From: Candidatus Jettenia ecosi
GTDB lineage: Bacteria > Planctomycetota > Brocadiia > Brocadiales > Brocadiaceae
Assembly (NCBI GenBank): GCA_005524015.1
Contig: SULG01000022.1
Coordinates: 1-45,434, forward strand
Direction of reading: 5' to 3'
Length of the DNA stretch: 45,434 bases
Made by a program: the position numbers and the translations under genes
Notes under the pieces: generated by a model
The model's database searches: none
What the model was told of the DNA's origin: nothing
The model's input: only the letters and a program-made list of their open reading frames with translations
Shown: positions 96 to 45,434 of the stretch, piece after piece
Position numbering within the stretch: the first letter of the stretch is position 1
How the letters are laid out: the number at the start of each line of letters is the position of its first letter

Positions 96-427
96 TATAG
101 TGATCAACGATTGAAACCGAACAATAAAAGATATCATGATTAGGGTATACGGTGTTTTTTCTTTCTCAATCTCGAAGAGATGTTATGATTATAGCAAAAG
201 CAGAAAAAAGAGTTTCAACCCCGAAGGGGTGACAGAACAAACCAGTGTTTCGGTATCATCCCTTCGGGACTTGATTTACGGGTAGTTTCTTATCTCTCAG
301 TATCTCACTCCTTCAGAGTGAATTTCATAATCAACGATTGAAACCCATTAACATATGCTGGAAACCAAGCTTTTCCCTTGCCTTCTGAGATATGCGGTAT
401 GTTCGGTTTCATCCATGGAGTACTATA
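96..427 (-). repeat. 332-bp terminal-inverted-repeat element, locus 1
   Basis: The element runs from TATAGT to ACTATA and has imperfect inverted ends that share GAAACCGAACA / TGTTCGGTTTC. Inside is one CCCGAAGGG-type palindrome module (184-275) in the opposite orientation to all other copies. Read on the minus strand, most of the interior matches 22692-22984, while the outer flanks (CCACATGT on the left, GCTTGATGCATATG on the right) match that locus on the plus strand. It therefore looks like one element placed in opposite orientations in the same target context. Confidence 0.65.
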
Positions 428-13829: not shown

Positions 13830-17448
<3,619 letters not shown>

Positions 17449-22161: not shown

Positions 22162-22277
22162 TATCTTTCAGAAGAAAGATATACTATTATAGTATCAAGA
22201 TCATTCATGATACTACGGCTGGCTCAATCTTCTACGATTGAATCAAGACGTTGAGCATTTCTCTCTGATATCATCTT

Positions 22278-22360
22278 GTCATTGCGAGGGTATTGTCTGA
22301 AGCAATCTCCTGAATAGTTCAGAAAAGAGATTGCTTCGGGAAAAAACCCCTCGCAATGAC
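22278..22360. repeat. CATTGCGAGGG palindrome, copy 1
   Basis: The arms GTCATTGCGAGGG and CCCTCGCAATGAC, with inner AGCAATCTC / GAGATTGCT arms, form a large imperfect hairpin. The same family is at 24738-24816, and similar palindromes are widespread in bacterial genomes. Confidence 0.85.
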
Positions 22361-22590
22361 AAATACGAGAAAGTCCTATTATAATAAATTAAGTTGAGAG
22401 TGTACTATGAGGGCAATCGCACCAAAATAAGAATTGCGCCGCCCAAACGGCTTAAACGGTTTTTTATAAGCATCCTAAGCTATGTCTCCTGGTTATTTTA
22501 AAGATGTGGGTAAGGATAAGTTTAAAAAAGGGGAGAAAGAAGGAAGGATTTTTTCTTGAGAAAAGCTTGCCTGATCAAACATATCAAATA

Positions 22591-22691: not shown

Positions 22692-22984
22692 TATAGTACT
22701 CCATGGATGAAACCGAACATACCGCGTATCTCAGAACACCATGAAAACCTACGAATAAATACCCCCGAAGGGGTGACATGGTTATAGATAAGCAATTACC
22801 ATGAAATCAAATCCCGAAGGGATGACACCGGAACGCAGGTTTCTCATGTCACCCCTTCGGGGTTGAAAACCTTTTTTCCGTTTCTGCTATAATCATGACA
22901 TCCCTTCGGGATTGAGAAAGAAAGATACCTTATACCATAACCATGATCTCTCTTCCTGTTCGGTTTCAGTCGTTGATCACTATA
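22692..22984 (+). repeat. 293-bp terminal-inverted-repeat element, locus 2
   Basis: The ends are TATAGT and ACTATA with sub-terminal GATGAAACCGAACAT / TGTTCGGTTTCAGTC. It carries CCCGAAGGG module C4 (about 22760-22915) in the plus orientation. The left arm matches the right arm of locus 1 (96-427), and the right arm matches the left arm of locus 1, so the element is inverted relative to locus 1 while the outer flanks are alike. Confidence 0.65.
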
Positions 22985-23259
22985 GCTTGATGCATATGTG
23001 GTTTGCCCGTGTCACCCTATCCAGGGCTTGTGGGTAATGATAAGGGGCAACCCTTCAGGATTATGCTATCCCCCGTCTATACATTCAGGCGGGGGAGCAA
23101 GGCTAAAGCCTTGCCCTACAAGGGCAATCTCATGGGTGAATTGAATAGTGGACCAGCAGAGAATTCTCTCCATATTTCAATCCTTAACCAAAAAGCTACT
23201 CAGTCTCTGAAACGGGAATTTCTCTGCAATAAATCTCCCCGGCAGTGGAGATCTGTATT

Positions 23260-24360: not shown

Positions 24361-24944
24361 TAGGGAAAATAAGGAGCTACCGAAGGTATCTTCTCTTTGC
24401 CCTCTCAGTTTTTTCAAGCTATGAGTAGGATGGATTAAGTCGTTAGTTTTTACGCCGAATCCACCACTACTATTTCCAGGAAAGGCGGATTCGCTATCGC
24501 TTAATCCGCCCTGCTCATAACTCGATGTATAGGAATTTCAAAGCAATTCTGTAGTGGCAAGGCGCGCCTTGCCACTACACGTCTTTACGATTTAAAAGTC
24601 GTCGGAGACTTAATTAAACGTATAGGGATTTCAATTCTATAGGGCAACCCTTTCAGGTTGCCCTACATATTTCATAGTTATAGTATCTAAATGATGAAAC
24701 CGAACATATCATCAACTGAAGAAAGATTCCCCAGTCTGTCATTGCGAGGGTCTTTTCCGAAGCAATCTTTTCTGAAATATTCAAGGGATTGCTTCGGACA
24801 CTACCCTCGCAATGACATGTTAAGAATCCTCTCCATTTCATACACTTACCTATGAGCCAAAGACTCAGCTTTCTCCCTGTTCTGCCCGGTTTCATCTGTT
24901 GGATGCTGTAATCACGATAATGCAAGCCCAAAGGGGTGAAATGA
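24361..24944. repeat. Gap with several palindromic repeats
   Basis: No gene is seen. Contents: a GGATGGATTAAG / CTTAATCCGCCC imperfect inverted repeat (about 24427-24520), the palindrome GTAGTGGCAAGGCGCGCCTT continuing to GCCACTAC (24551-24578), and an element with TATAGT end (24679 to about 24919) that carries a CATTGCGAGGG palindrome (24738-24816) as cargo. Half of a CCCGAAGGG-type module follows (about 24925-24955). Confidence 0.7.
24738..24816. repeat. CATTGCGAGGG palindrome, copy 2
   Basis: The arms GTCATTGCGAGGG and CCCTCGCAATGAC match copy 1 (22278-22360). This copy lies between GATGAAACCGAACAT (left) and GCCCGGTTTCATC (right), that is, inside the ends of another repeat family. Confidence 0.85.
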
Positions 24945-25952: not shown

Positions 25953-26305
25953 TCGGAATCCTCACATATACAGATTTTTTAAAAAATATTTCACTATGTT
26001 ATTTTGTCTTCCTGAGCAAAAATCGTACAGGAAGCCTGCCATACACAGGGCAAGGCTGAGGCCCCATATGCATCAGGCTAAGCTCTCGTAGATTGCTGGC
26101 TTGTTCCCAAACTCTTCCCCATTTACATGAGGACATGGTTTGGGAACAAGTTACCACAAGCTACTACAAGCCACAAGAACCATCATCGGCCGAAAGGCCG
26201 GAAGTCTCTAGCCAGGGATGAAGGCTCCTTGGATACAAAAATCCTTAGCTTGATGCGTATGGGCTGAAGCCCTGCCCTGCCGGTGTATTTTCCGATCTAT
26301 TCAGA
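25953..26305. other. Gap with inverted repeats
   Basis: No gene is seen. CTTGTTCCCAAAC (26100-26112) pairs with GTTTGGGAACAAG (26138-26150), and GGCCGAAAGGCC (about 26188-26200) is a tight hairpin. AGCTTGATGCGTATGGGCTG (about 26248-26267) is the sequence that flanks the terminal-inverted-repeat elements at 428 and 22985, here without such an element. Confidence 0.55.
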
Positions 26306-34868: not shown

Positions 34869-35699
34869 AACGTTACACCATGGTTTGGATAAGGAAAACG
34901 AAAGATTTTACGGTATTCAAGATACGGTTACAGATTTTATTGATTATGGATCTTATACCAGGATTATACCAGGACTTTGCCCTCCTTTGCCATATTATAT
35001 AATGTAAGAGTAACTTTGTTATAGTAATGTTAAAACAAAATGTCACTTTATTTTTGAGATCATGATAGTACAAAAATACCCGTAATTACTCAAAATAAGG
35101 TGCAAAACCTGGGTAGGGGCGAACCTTGTGTTCGCCCTGATCATGGGAAAACGCACAGATCTTGGATTTACACAAAGGGTGGGCGAACACAAGGTTCGCC
35201 CCTACTGTGATCCAACAGTATTTTGAGTAACTACAAATACCCTATAATTCAGAAGTGGTAACAGATAAAATGAAGATGATCTCTATTTCAAGCCCGAAGG
35301 GCTGTCATGATTATAGATAATGAATTACCGCAAAATCAATAACCCTGAAGGGGTAAAATACTTATCAGAAAACAACGGCAAATTCCCAGGCAATGACCGG
35401 TATACACGGGTTTTCCATGCCACCCCTTCGGGGTTCAAATCCTTTCTTCTGCTCTTTTGCTATAATCATACCATCCCTTCGGGATTATGAGACAAAAATA
35501 CCTTGATTGTGTAGGAATTTTCATTTTATGTAAGCGGTTTTCAGGGTGGCATGGACAAACAAAGTTTGTCAGTGCCACCCTTGACTAAACAATACCTTGA
35601 TACTCTATCACTCCGTTTCTTTGGGATGAGGAAAAACTGATCTGCACTTTCCGGGAAATTTTACTCTACTCTGTGACATTTTGTTTTGAGATTGCTATA
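34869..35699. repeat. Gap with nested palindromes and module C5
   Basis: No convincing gene is seen. An outer inverted pair, AATTACTCAAAATA (about 35083-35096) and TATTTTGAGTAACT, encloses the perfect 25-bp-arm palindrome at 35113-35205. Module C5 (about 35289-35488) follows, with CCCGAAGGGCTGTCATGATT, CACCCCTTCGGGG and CATCCCTTCGGGATT. GGGTGGCATGGACAAACAAA / GTTTGTCAGTGCCACCC (about 35546-35579) is a further hairpin near the 3' end of the YihY gene and may help terminate its transcript. Confidence 0.7.
35113..35205. repeat. GTAGGGGCGAACC palindrome, copy 1
   Basis: The arms begin GTAGGGGCGAACCTTGTG and are perfect over 25 bases (35113-35137 with 35181-35205). The same family is at 43636-43727 with one mismatch, with a different loop sequence of nearly the same length. 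Confidence 0.9.
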
Positions 35700-43764: not shown

Positions 43765-43820
43765 ACAAAAAAGCCTTACTACAAAGATATTCACTAAAAA
43801 ACACCTCGGCAGTAAGGCTG
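43765..43820 (-). terminator. Possible terminator after the Lys/Glu-rich secreted protein gene
   Basis: On the minus strand AGCCTTACT pairs exactly with AGTAAGGCT and is followed at once by TTTTTTG. The loop of about 30 bases is long for an intrinsic terminator, and the site is 250 bases beyond the gene, so the call is tentative. Confidence 0.4.
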
Positions 43821-44076
43821 TCTTTTCCTGTACTTCTCTTCACTCTTCCCAAGACCCTTTCCTTTGCGTCCTCTGATTACTCAGAGTTTGCCCTTATCCG
43901 TACTACATTTTATCTTTGGTAAGAATCCTTATTGCATATTGCTTAACCCTTCTCCGAATACATTACAAGCGAGCAATCTCTTAAAGATGTTGCATCTGAA
44001 GGATATATTCTTGAATCTTTTCAAGAAAGGAGGGGAACCCAACAGATGCAACAATCTAAGTATTTCATAAAACTCT

Positions 44077-44734: not shown

Positions 44735-44779
44735 ACCGCCGAGTAGGCCAGGGGGAGTTTCACCCCCAAGCCTCTCACA

Positions 44780-44813
44780 GAACCGTACGTGACAGTCTCC
44801 CGTCATACGGCTC
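44780..44813 (-). ncRNA. Group II intron domain V
   Basis: The 34-nt catalytic hairpin GAGCCGTATGACGGGAGACT continuing to GTCACGTACGGTTC on the minus strand. It has the family outline: GAGCCGTAT paired to ACGTACGGTTC with a bulge, and a short capped upper stem. Domain VI follows at about 44744-44773 (AGGCTTGGGGG / CCCCCTGGCCT). Confidence 0.9.
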
Positions 44814-44832
44814 GTGTTATTCTTGATACGCT

Positions 44833-45434
44833 TCAACAATATCCCATTTTCCAGTGATAAAACAGTTCTGTGTTTGCTTGTTTTATCGAATTGAGTTTTG
44901 CCACTGATTTCCGGTAGCCAATCTTGTGCTTTTTCCTCAGCCACTTGATGAGTCGCCCGTCTATCGTCATTAAGCTGTTTCTTAGGCTTCTTATGCTGTA
45001 TTTACCATAATACGCTATCCAGCCCCGAAGTTTGGCATTGAGGAGTTTTGCGATTTCCTGGATTTCTACCTGCGTGTTACTCCAGAGTTTTACTTCCCTG
45101 ATTTCTTCCCGTATTCGCTTCTGATTGGTTTGGCTTATCTCGGCTGCAAATGCGGTAAAACTCTTACCATCTCTGGTGCTCTTTTTTGCTCTCGGCTGAT
45201 AACTGTATCCAAGAAATTCAAATTTGACCTCTTCATGCCTTCCTTTCCGTCTATAGTCCTTACCGTAAGCAATCCGTGTCTTTTCCTCTTTGATTTGCAG
45301 CTTTACTTCTGCAAGTCTCTGCCTTATCGCTTCCAGCACTTTCCCCGACTCTGCTTTGCTTGTACCGTGTACCACTACGTCGTCCGCATATCTCACAAAG
45401 CTTACTTGCGGATAGTGCCTGGATAGCCACACAT
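44833..45434 (-). CDS. ltrA: Group II intron reverse transcriptase/maturase, C-terminal part (partial)
   Basis: The last 199 or more residues of an intron-encoded protein. FVRYADDVVVHGTSK holds the reverse transcriptase YADD active site, EEKTRIAYGKDYRRKGRHEE and VKFEFLGYSYQPR are the following RT blocks, and the maturase (X) domain follows with LRGWIAYYGKYSIRSLRNS and LIKWLRKKHK. The protein ends soon after (ELFYHWKMGYC), with no HNH endonuclease domain, as in endonuclease-less lineages. It needs the intron RNA around it for splicing and mobility. The N-terminal half is missing only because the window ends. Confidence 0.95.
   Translation of the reverse strand, partial: VWLSRHYPQVSFVRYADDVVVHGTSKAESGKVLEAIRQRLAEVKLQIKEEKTRIAYGKDYRRKGRHEEVKFEFLGYSYQPRAKKSTRDGKSFTAFAAEISQTNQKRIREEIREVKLWSNTQVEIQEIAKLLNAKLRGWIAYYGKYSIRSLRNSLMTIDGRLIKWLRKKHKIGYRKSVAKLNSIKQANTELFYHWKMGYC

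What the first reader, a model, noticed from the sequence alone, without database searches (positions are those of the whole stretch)
24679..24919. Different palindrome families exchanged as cargo inside the same outer ends
At 24679-24919 ends of the TATAGT/GAAACCGAACA type enclose a CATTGCGAGGG palindrome, whereas at 96-427 and 22692-22984 the same ends enclose CCCGAAGGG modules. At 35083-35232 a TACTCAAAATA pair encloses a GTAGGGGCGAACC palindrome. The intergenic DNA appears to be built by repeated insertion of palindromes into palindromes.
Basis: seen in the sequence. Interest (0 to 1): 0.5.

Follow-up and report, generated by a model that had tools for sequence, protein, structure and literature searches.

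The report
Palindrome cargo nested in bacterial mini-transposons
In an uncultured bacterium, tiny transposons that share the same ends carry different hairpin repeats as passengers, and one of those hairpins turns out to be the usual companion of a small DNA-cutting enzyme gene in many bacterial phyla, a partner that hairpins of this kind were thought to lack.

Summary
Window 24679-24910 is a mini-transposon (MITE; 228 bp plus a duplicated TA) with TATAG..GAAACCGAACA ends; a same-genus relative keeps the exact empty site. Of 72 such elements in fetched DNA of this genome, 44 carry the CATTGCGAG palindrome, 16 CCCGAAGGG, 11 CGGACAA and 1 two of these. The CATTGCGAG palindrome also occurs outside these ends, so cargo is exchanged. 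But at 24679 the composite moved as one unit; its nesting is inherited. Other nestings are separate insertions with their own target duplications. Enrichment of nesting over repeat density is only weakly supported.

The cargo is the larger result. One TATAG element carries a GIY-YIG endonuclease gene between the CATTGCGAG arms. Of 80 related GIY-YIG genes from many phyla, 71 have such motifs within 200 bp on both sides (reversed-motif control 2 of 80). The unit is TGTC-tagged, the format of the 'CGTC' REPs that a 2013 study found without a dedicated transposase. The CCCGAAGGG cargo instead encloses a REP-type tyrosine transposase in one copy. That GIY-YIG spreads the hairpins is inferred, not shown.

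The parts
24679..24910 (+). A-type TATAG element with TA target duplication (element proper 24681-24908)
   Evidence: 30-copy alignment; empty site in relative G095; 218 end motifs, control 0
24679..24706 (+). left terminal repeat TATAGTATCTAAATGATGAAACCGAACA (first TA = target copy)
24878..24911 (-). right terminal repeat as delimited by the repeat finder (target copy TA at 24909-24910)
24737..24817 (.). cargo: TGTC-tagged CATTGCGAG hairpin dimer, the gene-less form of the GIY-YIG unit
   Evidence: half-site pattern 140 matches in the genome, reversed control 0
22692..22984 (+). B-type TATAG element with CCCGAAGGG cargo, inserted at a TTAG site in the end of a D repeat
22763..22913 (.). cargo E: CCCGAAGGG module (two hairpins plus two inverted); elsewhere its arms enclose a Y1 transposase gene
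96..427 (-). B-type TATAG element, same family, opposite orientation within the same D-end flanks
22985..22998 (.). D-repeat end GCTTGATGCATATG next to the B element; the other flank is CCGTTTCCACATGT
22277..22361 (.). second CATTGCGAG dimer, not inside TATAG ends
22185..22407 (.). repeat F that holds the second dimer (span of matches in relatives; right end TTGAGAGTGTACTA 22394-22407)
35082..35234 (+). C element: GTAATTACTCAAAATA terminal repeats around a GTAG-type palindrome; 8-bp target copies 35074-35081 and 35235-35242
35113..35205 (.). cargo of C: GTAGGGGCGAACC palindrome arms (35113-35137, 35181-35205)
26065..26261 (.). D repeat with 11-bp target duplication (1 mismatch)

Best explanation
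The intergenic DNA holds two layers. Outer layer: MITE-like elements moved by transposases that are not inside them: TATAG elements (TA target duplication, target pyrimidine-TA-purine, as in IS630/Tc1-mariner), C elements (8-bp duplication, GTAA ends, as in IS66) and D repeats (11-bp duplication). Inner layer: REP-type hairpin units with their own enzyme partners, which have become trapped in the outer elements and are then copied with them. The CATTGCGAG cargo at 24737-24817 is the gene-less form of a unit TGTC-hairpin / GIY-YIG gene / inverted hairpin; the CCCGAAGGG cargo is the gene-less form of a unit with a REP-type Y1 transposase. Exchange of cargo = separate trappings of different hairpin units, or separate origins of MITEs that keep only the ends needed by the same transposase. 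Proposed mechanism (inferred): the small GIY-YIG nuclease cuts at or next to the hairpin, and repair or gene conversion spreads the hairpin unit, as RAYTs are thought to do for GTAG REPs. Shown: anatomy, TA duplication by an empty site, several cargo types inside one set of ends, co-occurrence of the GIY-YIG gene with the palindrome across phyla, one site where a relative lacks the GIY-YIG unit. Inferred: which transposase moves TATAG elements, and that GIY-YIG moves the hairpins.
For: Empty site for the window element in G095. 72 strict TATAG elements with three main cargo types; the base outside the TA is C or T at 137 of 144 ends. Five elements sit inside a D end with D on both sides; they differ in cargo (A or B) and orientation, so at least four insertions. 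Separate nestings with target duplications: D 11 bp, H 4 bp, K TA. C element: 6 of 12 copies have an exact 8-bp duplication. A GIY-YIG gene between CATTGCGAG arms inside TATAG ends at C37:9082-9612. 71 of 80 GIY-YIG loci with the motifs on both sides, reversed control 2 of 80, 200-bp windows 600-800 bp away 10 and 8 of 80. Half-site pattern in 37 of 40 genomes, reversed control 0 in 40 (the own genome plus the genomes of 39 of the 80 loci). Label follows the GIY-YIG tree: 12 changes, shuffled mean 44.5. The GIY-YIG unit between two genes is absent in relative G137, whose two matching pieces are adjacent. Y1 transposase enclosed by CCCGAAGGG arms in L189.
Against: No transposase gene was found inside TATAG ends: of 9 stretches fetched around DDE_3 matches only one (L141) shows TATAG ends, and these belong to a complete mini-element beside the gene. 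I saw no GIY-YIG copy caught moving; in this genome there is one copy with intact arms, and the hairpins multiply inside MITEs. In relative G105 truncated GIY-YIG genes multiply inside a larger repeat, which shows hitch-hiking and not own movement. In gammaproteobacterial genomes only 10 of 48 small GIY-YIG loci have inverted repeats of 11 nt or more around them (swapped-pair control 2 of 48), two of the ten without a clear REP. 3 of 40 genomes lack the half-site although they have the gene. The enclosed-transposase case for CCCGAAGGG is one of 16 Y1 loci examined. No target duplication was resolved for the hairpin unit.
Confidence: 0.72

Rival explanations
1. The CATTGCGAG and CCCGAAGGG palindromes are only the inner parts of old MITEs. 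The shared ends are the whole mobile unit, the palindromes are passengers without an enzyme, and the GIY-YIG gene is a chance passenger too.
For: In this genome most copies move with outer ends; in G105 truncated GIY-YIG genes multiply inside a larger repeat; several hairpin copies in G003 share flanks with each other.
Against: 71 of 80 GIY-YIG loci in many phyla carry the same palindrome, most without any TATAG end seen, against 2 of 80 in the control; dimers with unrelated flanks in G003; similarity between two outer contexts stops at TGTC / GACA.
Confidence: 0.2
2. The GIY-YIG gene is a homing endonuclease gene: it invades existing palindromes by cutting the uninterrupted hairpin, and the palindromes themselves spread by another route.
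For: The gene sits between the two half-sites, as a homing gene splits its own target; catalytic positions are kept in 60 or 61 of 61 aligned proteins (Y8, Y19, G21, R29, E66, N85).
Against: In several loci a complete hairpin pair lies on each side of the gene, so the gene does not always split one; where a relative lacks the unit it lacks the palindrome too.
Confidence: 0.3
3. The nesting is no more than expected where repeats are dense and genes do not tolerate insertions.
For: Intergenic DNA is only 16-19% of the three blocks by an ORF mask, and the D hairpin test is not significant.
Against: At least four separate TATAG insertions at the same TTAG of the D end, and D copies with 11-bp duplications in three different palindrome-bearing elements (and L157).
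Confidence: 0.35

Closest known systems
REP/RAYT systems and REPINs (GTAG-tagged REPs; Di Nocera 2013 PMC3733652, REPIN paper PMC3116915 seen in listing only)
   Same: short tagged hairpins, inverted dimers, many dispersed copies, one enzyme gene flanked by the hairpins
   Different: the enzyme next to CATTGCGAG is a GIY-YIG nuclease, not a Y1 tyrosine transposase
CGTC/TGTC-tagged REPs (Di Nocera 2013: sections 5, 6, 16, abstract and searched passages read)
   Same: TGTC/CGTC tag, stem beginning with AT, head-to-head dimers, several phyla
   Different: the paper reports no dedicated transposase and does not mention GIY-YIG in its text; its consensus figure is not held, so I cannot say whether CATTGCGAG is among its four families
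MITEs of IS630/Tc1-mariner type
   Same: short, terminal repeats, TA duplication, no gene, many copies
   Different: no autonomous partner found; carries exchangeable REP cargo
IS66-type MITE (C element; family features recalled)
   Same: GTAA ends and 8-bp duplication
   Different: no transposase partner sought or found
Homing endonuclease genes (GIY-YIG)
   Same: nuclease gene between two halves of a conserved site
   Different: no intron or intein; the site is a dispersed hairpin

Membership tests
MITE (TATAG element) | terminal inverted repeats, less than about 600 bp, many copies | tested here: met
MITE (TATAG element) | target duplication shown by an empty site | tested here: met
   TA at 24679-24680 / 24909-24910, empty site in G095
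MITE of the IS630 family | ends shared with an autonomous IS630-type element | tested here: not met
   no TATAG ends around DDE_3 genes in the 9 stretches fetched; contig ends and other genomes not covered
IS66-type MITE (C element) | GTAA ends and 8-bp duplication | tested here: met
   6 of 12 copies exact, 2 with one mismatch, 1 without, 3 with degenerate ends; family assignment recalled
CGTC-tagged REP | CGTC/TGTC tag and AT-starting stem | tested here: met
   TGTCATTGCGAG..CTCGCAATGACA around GIY-YIG genes; criteria
CGTC-tagged REP | matches one of the four published consensus families | not testable with these tools
   the figure with the consensus is not held
REPtron (RAYT flanked by REPs) | Y1 transposase gene flanked by the repeat, for CCCGAAGGG | tested here: met
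   L189, one of 16 Y1 loci
REPtron (RAYT flanked by REPs) | Y1 transposase gene flanked by the repeat, for CATTGCGAG | tested here: inconclusive
   of 16 Y1 loci of this genome, motifs within reach belong to neighbouring TATAG elements or are single words; no enclosed case was seen in the motif lists; other genomes not tested
GIY-YIG homing endonuclease | catalytic GIY-YIG domain | tested here: met
   PF01541 E 6.5e-19; catalytic positions kept
GIY-YIG homing endonuclease | cuts the uninterrupted site | not testable with these tools
   needs a biochemical assay

The most novel reading that the evidence does not exclude
Small stand-alone GIY-YIG endonucleases are the dedicated enzymes of the CGTC/TGTC-tagged REP hairpins: a hairpin-plus-nuclease class of mobile DNA, spread over many bacterial phyla, that works like RAYT/REP but with an unrelated enzyme, and whose gene-less hairpin dimers are picked up as cargo by ordinary MITEs.
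Probability: 0.45. Interest if true: 0.85.

Novelty: new variant of a known kind. Interest (0 to 1): 0.66.

Why it matters
CGTC REPs were described in 2013 as having no dedicated transposase, and the authors left open how they move (PMC3733652). A GIY-YIG gene enclosed by TGTC-tagged hairpins in 71 of 80 loci makes that question directly testable. It would also give a function to very common small 'GIY-YIG nuclease family' proteins, and it explains how intergenic DNA of this bacterium gets its layered palindromes: MITEs take up REP units and copy them further.

Tried and rejected
Palindrome inserted anew at 24679: rejected by the empty site, the composite came as one piece. L171 (158 bp) as the empty precursor of A: rejected, it keeps part of one arm and reads as a deletion. 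An IS630 gene inside TATAG ends: not found. The contig C118 transposase next to a TATAG end: that end belongs to a complete 233-bp element beside it. D repeats prefer hairpins: a first stem test showed nothing, a second gave p 0.11 for 7 unselected sites and p 0.036 for 10 sites from loci fetched for other reasons; I do not claim it. A loose end search gave 127 'elements' with false pairings; a strict one returned 0 because of a wrong spacer and was corrected; a few of the 72 long ones (440-854 bp) may still be wrong pairings. Paper searches for the literal sequence gave only noise. Searches of the open PMC library for GIY-YIG with REP, RAYT, REPIN, dRS3, CGTC, MITE or palindrome terms listed no paper that links GIY-YIG to these bacterial repeats; most subscription papers and all preprints are outside that library, and lists were read as listings. 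Of papers: PMC3733652 sections 5, 6, 16, outline and found passages; PMC10969869, PMC1564403, PMC12306157 and PMC6006769 by word search only; the rest as listings. A search on anammox repeats gave nothing.

Full report
Where it is. The window is contig 22 of a 3.86-Mb genome in 223 contigs. The best matches of one of its proteins are in Candidatus Brocadia (81-86% identity), so it is probably an anammox planctomycete; I did not test the species.

The structure at 24679. The ends TATAGT..GATGAAACCGAACA enclose a TGTCATTGCGAG..CTCGCAATGACA dimer. The composite is a repeat family: 85 matches in the genome with 40 of 150 candidates scored. Of 30 nearly full-length copies, 26 have exact TATAG..CTATA at both ends. 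In relative G095 (same genus) the orthologous gap reads TTTCATAGTTAATCACGATAATGC; in the window the same flanks enclose the element with TA doubled. So a 228-bp element entered a TTAA site as one piece. At 137 of 144 element ends the base outside the TA is a pyrimidine, i.e. the target is pyrimidine-TA-purine. This is like IS630/Tc1-mariner elements (recalled), but no transposase inside these ends was found.

Exchange of cargo. 218 end motifs lie in the genome, control 0. Of 72 strictly defined elements in the DNA that I fetched (chosen by similarity to A, B and the ends, so not a random sample), 44 carry CATTGCGAG, 16 CCCGAAGGG, 11 CGGACAA and 1 two of them. The CATTGCGAG dimer also lies outside TATAG ends: at 22277-22361 in repeat F, and in the relatives' blocks. 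At least one dimer in the G095 block (positions 1047-1123) has degenerate TATAG-like ends that the strict search missed.

Nesting events. TATAG elements of both cargo types and in both orientations lie at the same TTAG in the end of repeat D: five with D on both sides, hence at least four insertions. D lies in GTAGGGGCGAACC palindromes of two C elements and in the CGGACAA palindrome of a TATAG element, each with an 11-bp duplication. H (4-bp duplication) lies in a third C element; K (TA) lies in A and B elements. GTAGAGACGC palindromes have replaced parts of loops and one end of TATAG elements. The C element has GTAA ends and an 8-bp duplication in 6 of 12 copies, with 2 more at one mismatch. 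Against density: in the window 3 of 7 cargo units are in TATAG elements where about 8% is expected for a random unit; copies are related, and the strict search found no TATAG element in the two sister blocks, which hold 8 cargo units. Gene order in the three genomes is collinear, while intergenic contents differ.

What the CATTGCGAG cargo is. A TATAG element at C37:9082-9612 carries, between the CATTGCGAG arms, a 95-residue GIY-YIG protein (PF01541, E 6.5e-19). In 71 of 80, motifs of the palindrome (9-mers, one mismatch) lie within 200 bp on both sides; reversed motifs 2 of 80; windows 600-800 bp away 10 and 8 of 80. Examples show the gene exactly between TGTCATTGCGAG..CGAAGCAATC and its inverse. 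The exact half-site is dispersed in 37 of 40 genomes tested, reversed control 0 in all 40 (these are the own genome and the genomes of 39 of the 80 loci). In 60 of the 80 proteins plus the query, the catalytic positions Y8, Y19, G21, R29, E66 are invariant and N85 is kept in 60 of 61; 4 of the sequences contain a stop. In a Nitrospirota relative pair, the unit between two genes of L203 is absent in G137, where the two matching pieces (74% and 71% identity) adjoin; at that distance no target duplication can be read. Of 18 further loci printed for G003, at least seven show inverted dimers; some loci share flanks with each other, so part of them again lie in larger repeats.

Other CGTC hairpins. 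In 56 gammaproteobacterial genomes 54 have a GIY-YIG match. Of 48 small GIY-YIG loci examined (28 of the 30 loci returned, leaving out two with long frames, plus 20 fetched of the remaining small ones, not all), 10 have an inverted repeat of 11 nt or more around the gene, swapped-pair control 2 of 48; tags on both sides in 5, reversed tag 0. Several are classic CGTCATTCCGGC..GCCGGAATCCAG hairpins (L296, L302, L307, L309). Most of the 48 have none, as a set of old, settled genes would. On a tree of 129 proteins the hairpin type changes 12 times, shuffled mean 44.5; the sampling is uneven and few forks are resolved. The 2013 paper on these repeats says that CGTC REPs lack a dedicated transposase and its text does not mention GIY-YIG.

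A second view in the family. Among 33 genomes of the family, 24 have a match; G105 has 37. One G105 gene is complete (89% identity), and it lies behind a copy interrupted by the hairpin; 16 aligned derivatives have hairpin + codons 49-95 + hairpin, inside a larger repeat. This shows cargo multiplication by hitch-hiking, and it does not show movement by the nuclease.

The CCCGAAGGG cargo. Its modules read TGTCATCCCTTCGGGATT, also TGTC-tagged. In L189 (C3:33201) a Y1 transposase gene lies between two modules and their inverse, one of 16 Y1 loci.

Judgement. The nested cargo is real and explained by two layers of mobile DNA. The GIY-YIG/CGTC-hairpin partnership is well supported as an association; its mechanism is open.

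Noticed in passing
window 43805-43902 (-): c-di-GMP-I riboswitch above the gathering score.
   Followed up: no
window 44738-45432 (-): Group II intron match with a reverse transcriptase/maturase reading frame.
   Followed up: no
window 13836-14178: About 343 bp with a 120-aa reading frame present in the window and at least begun in G095 but cleanly missing in G096.
   Followed up: partly
L380 (G105:C1:1395500-1398600): A GIY-YIG gene copy interrupted by the hairpin near codon 48, directly followed by a complete copy; truncated derivatives start at the same codon.
   Followed up: partly
L159:482-1014 and L181: The GIY-YIG-bearing TATAG element seems to interrupt a gene whose remaining frame resembles a Y1 transposase end (resemblance judged by eye).
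   Followed up: no
G095 block (L344-L345), site of the window's B element: The relative has a gene of about 1.9 kb with propeller-like repeats between the same neighbours (repeats judged by eye).
   Followed up: no
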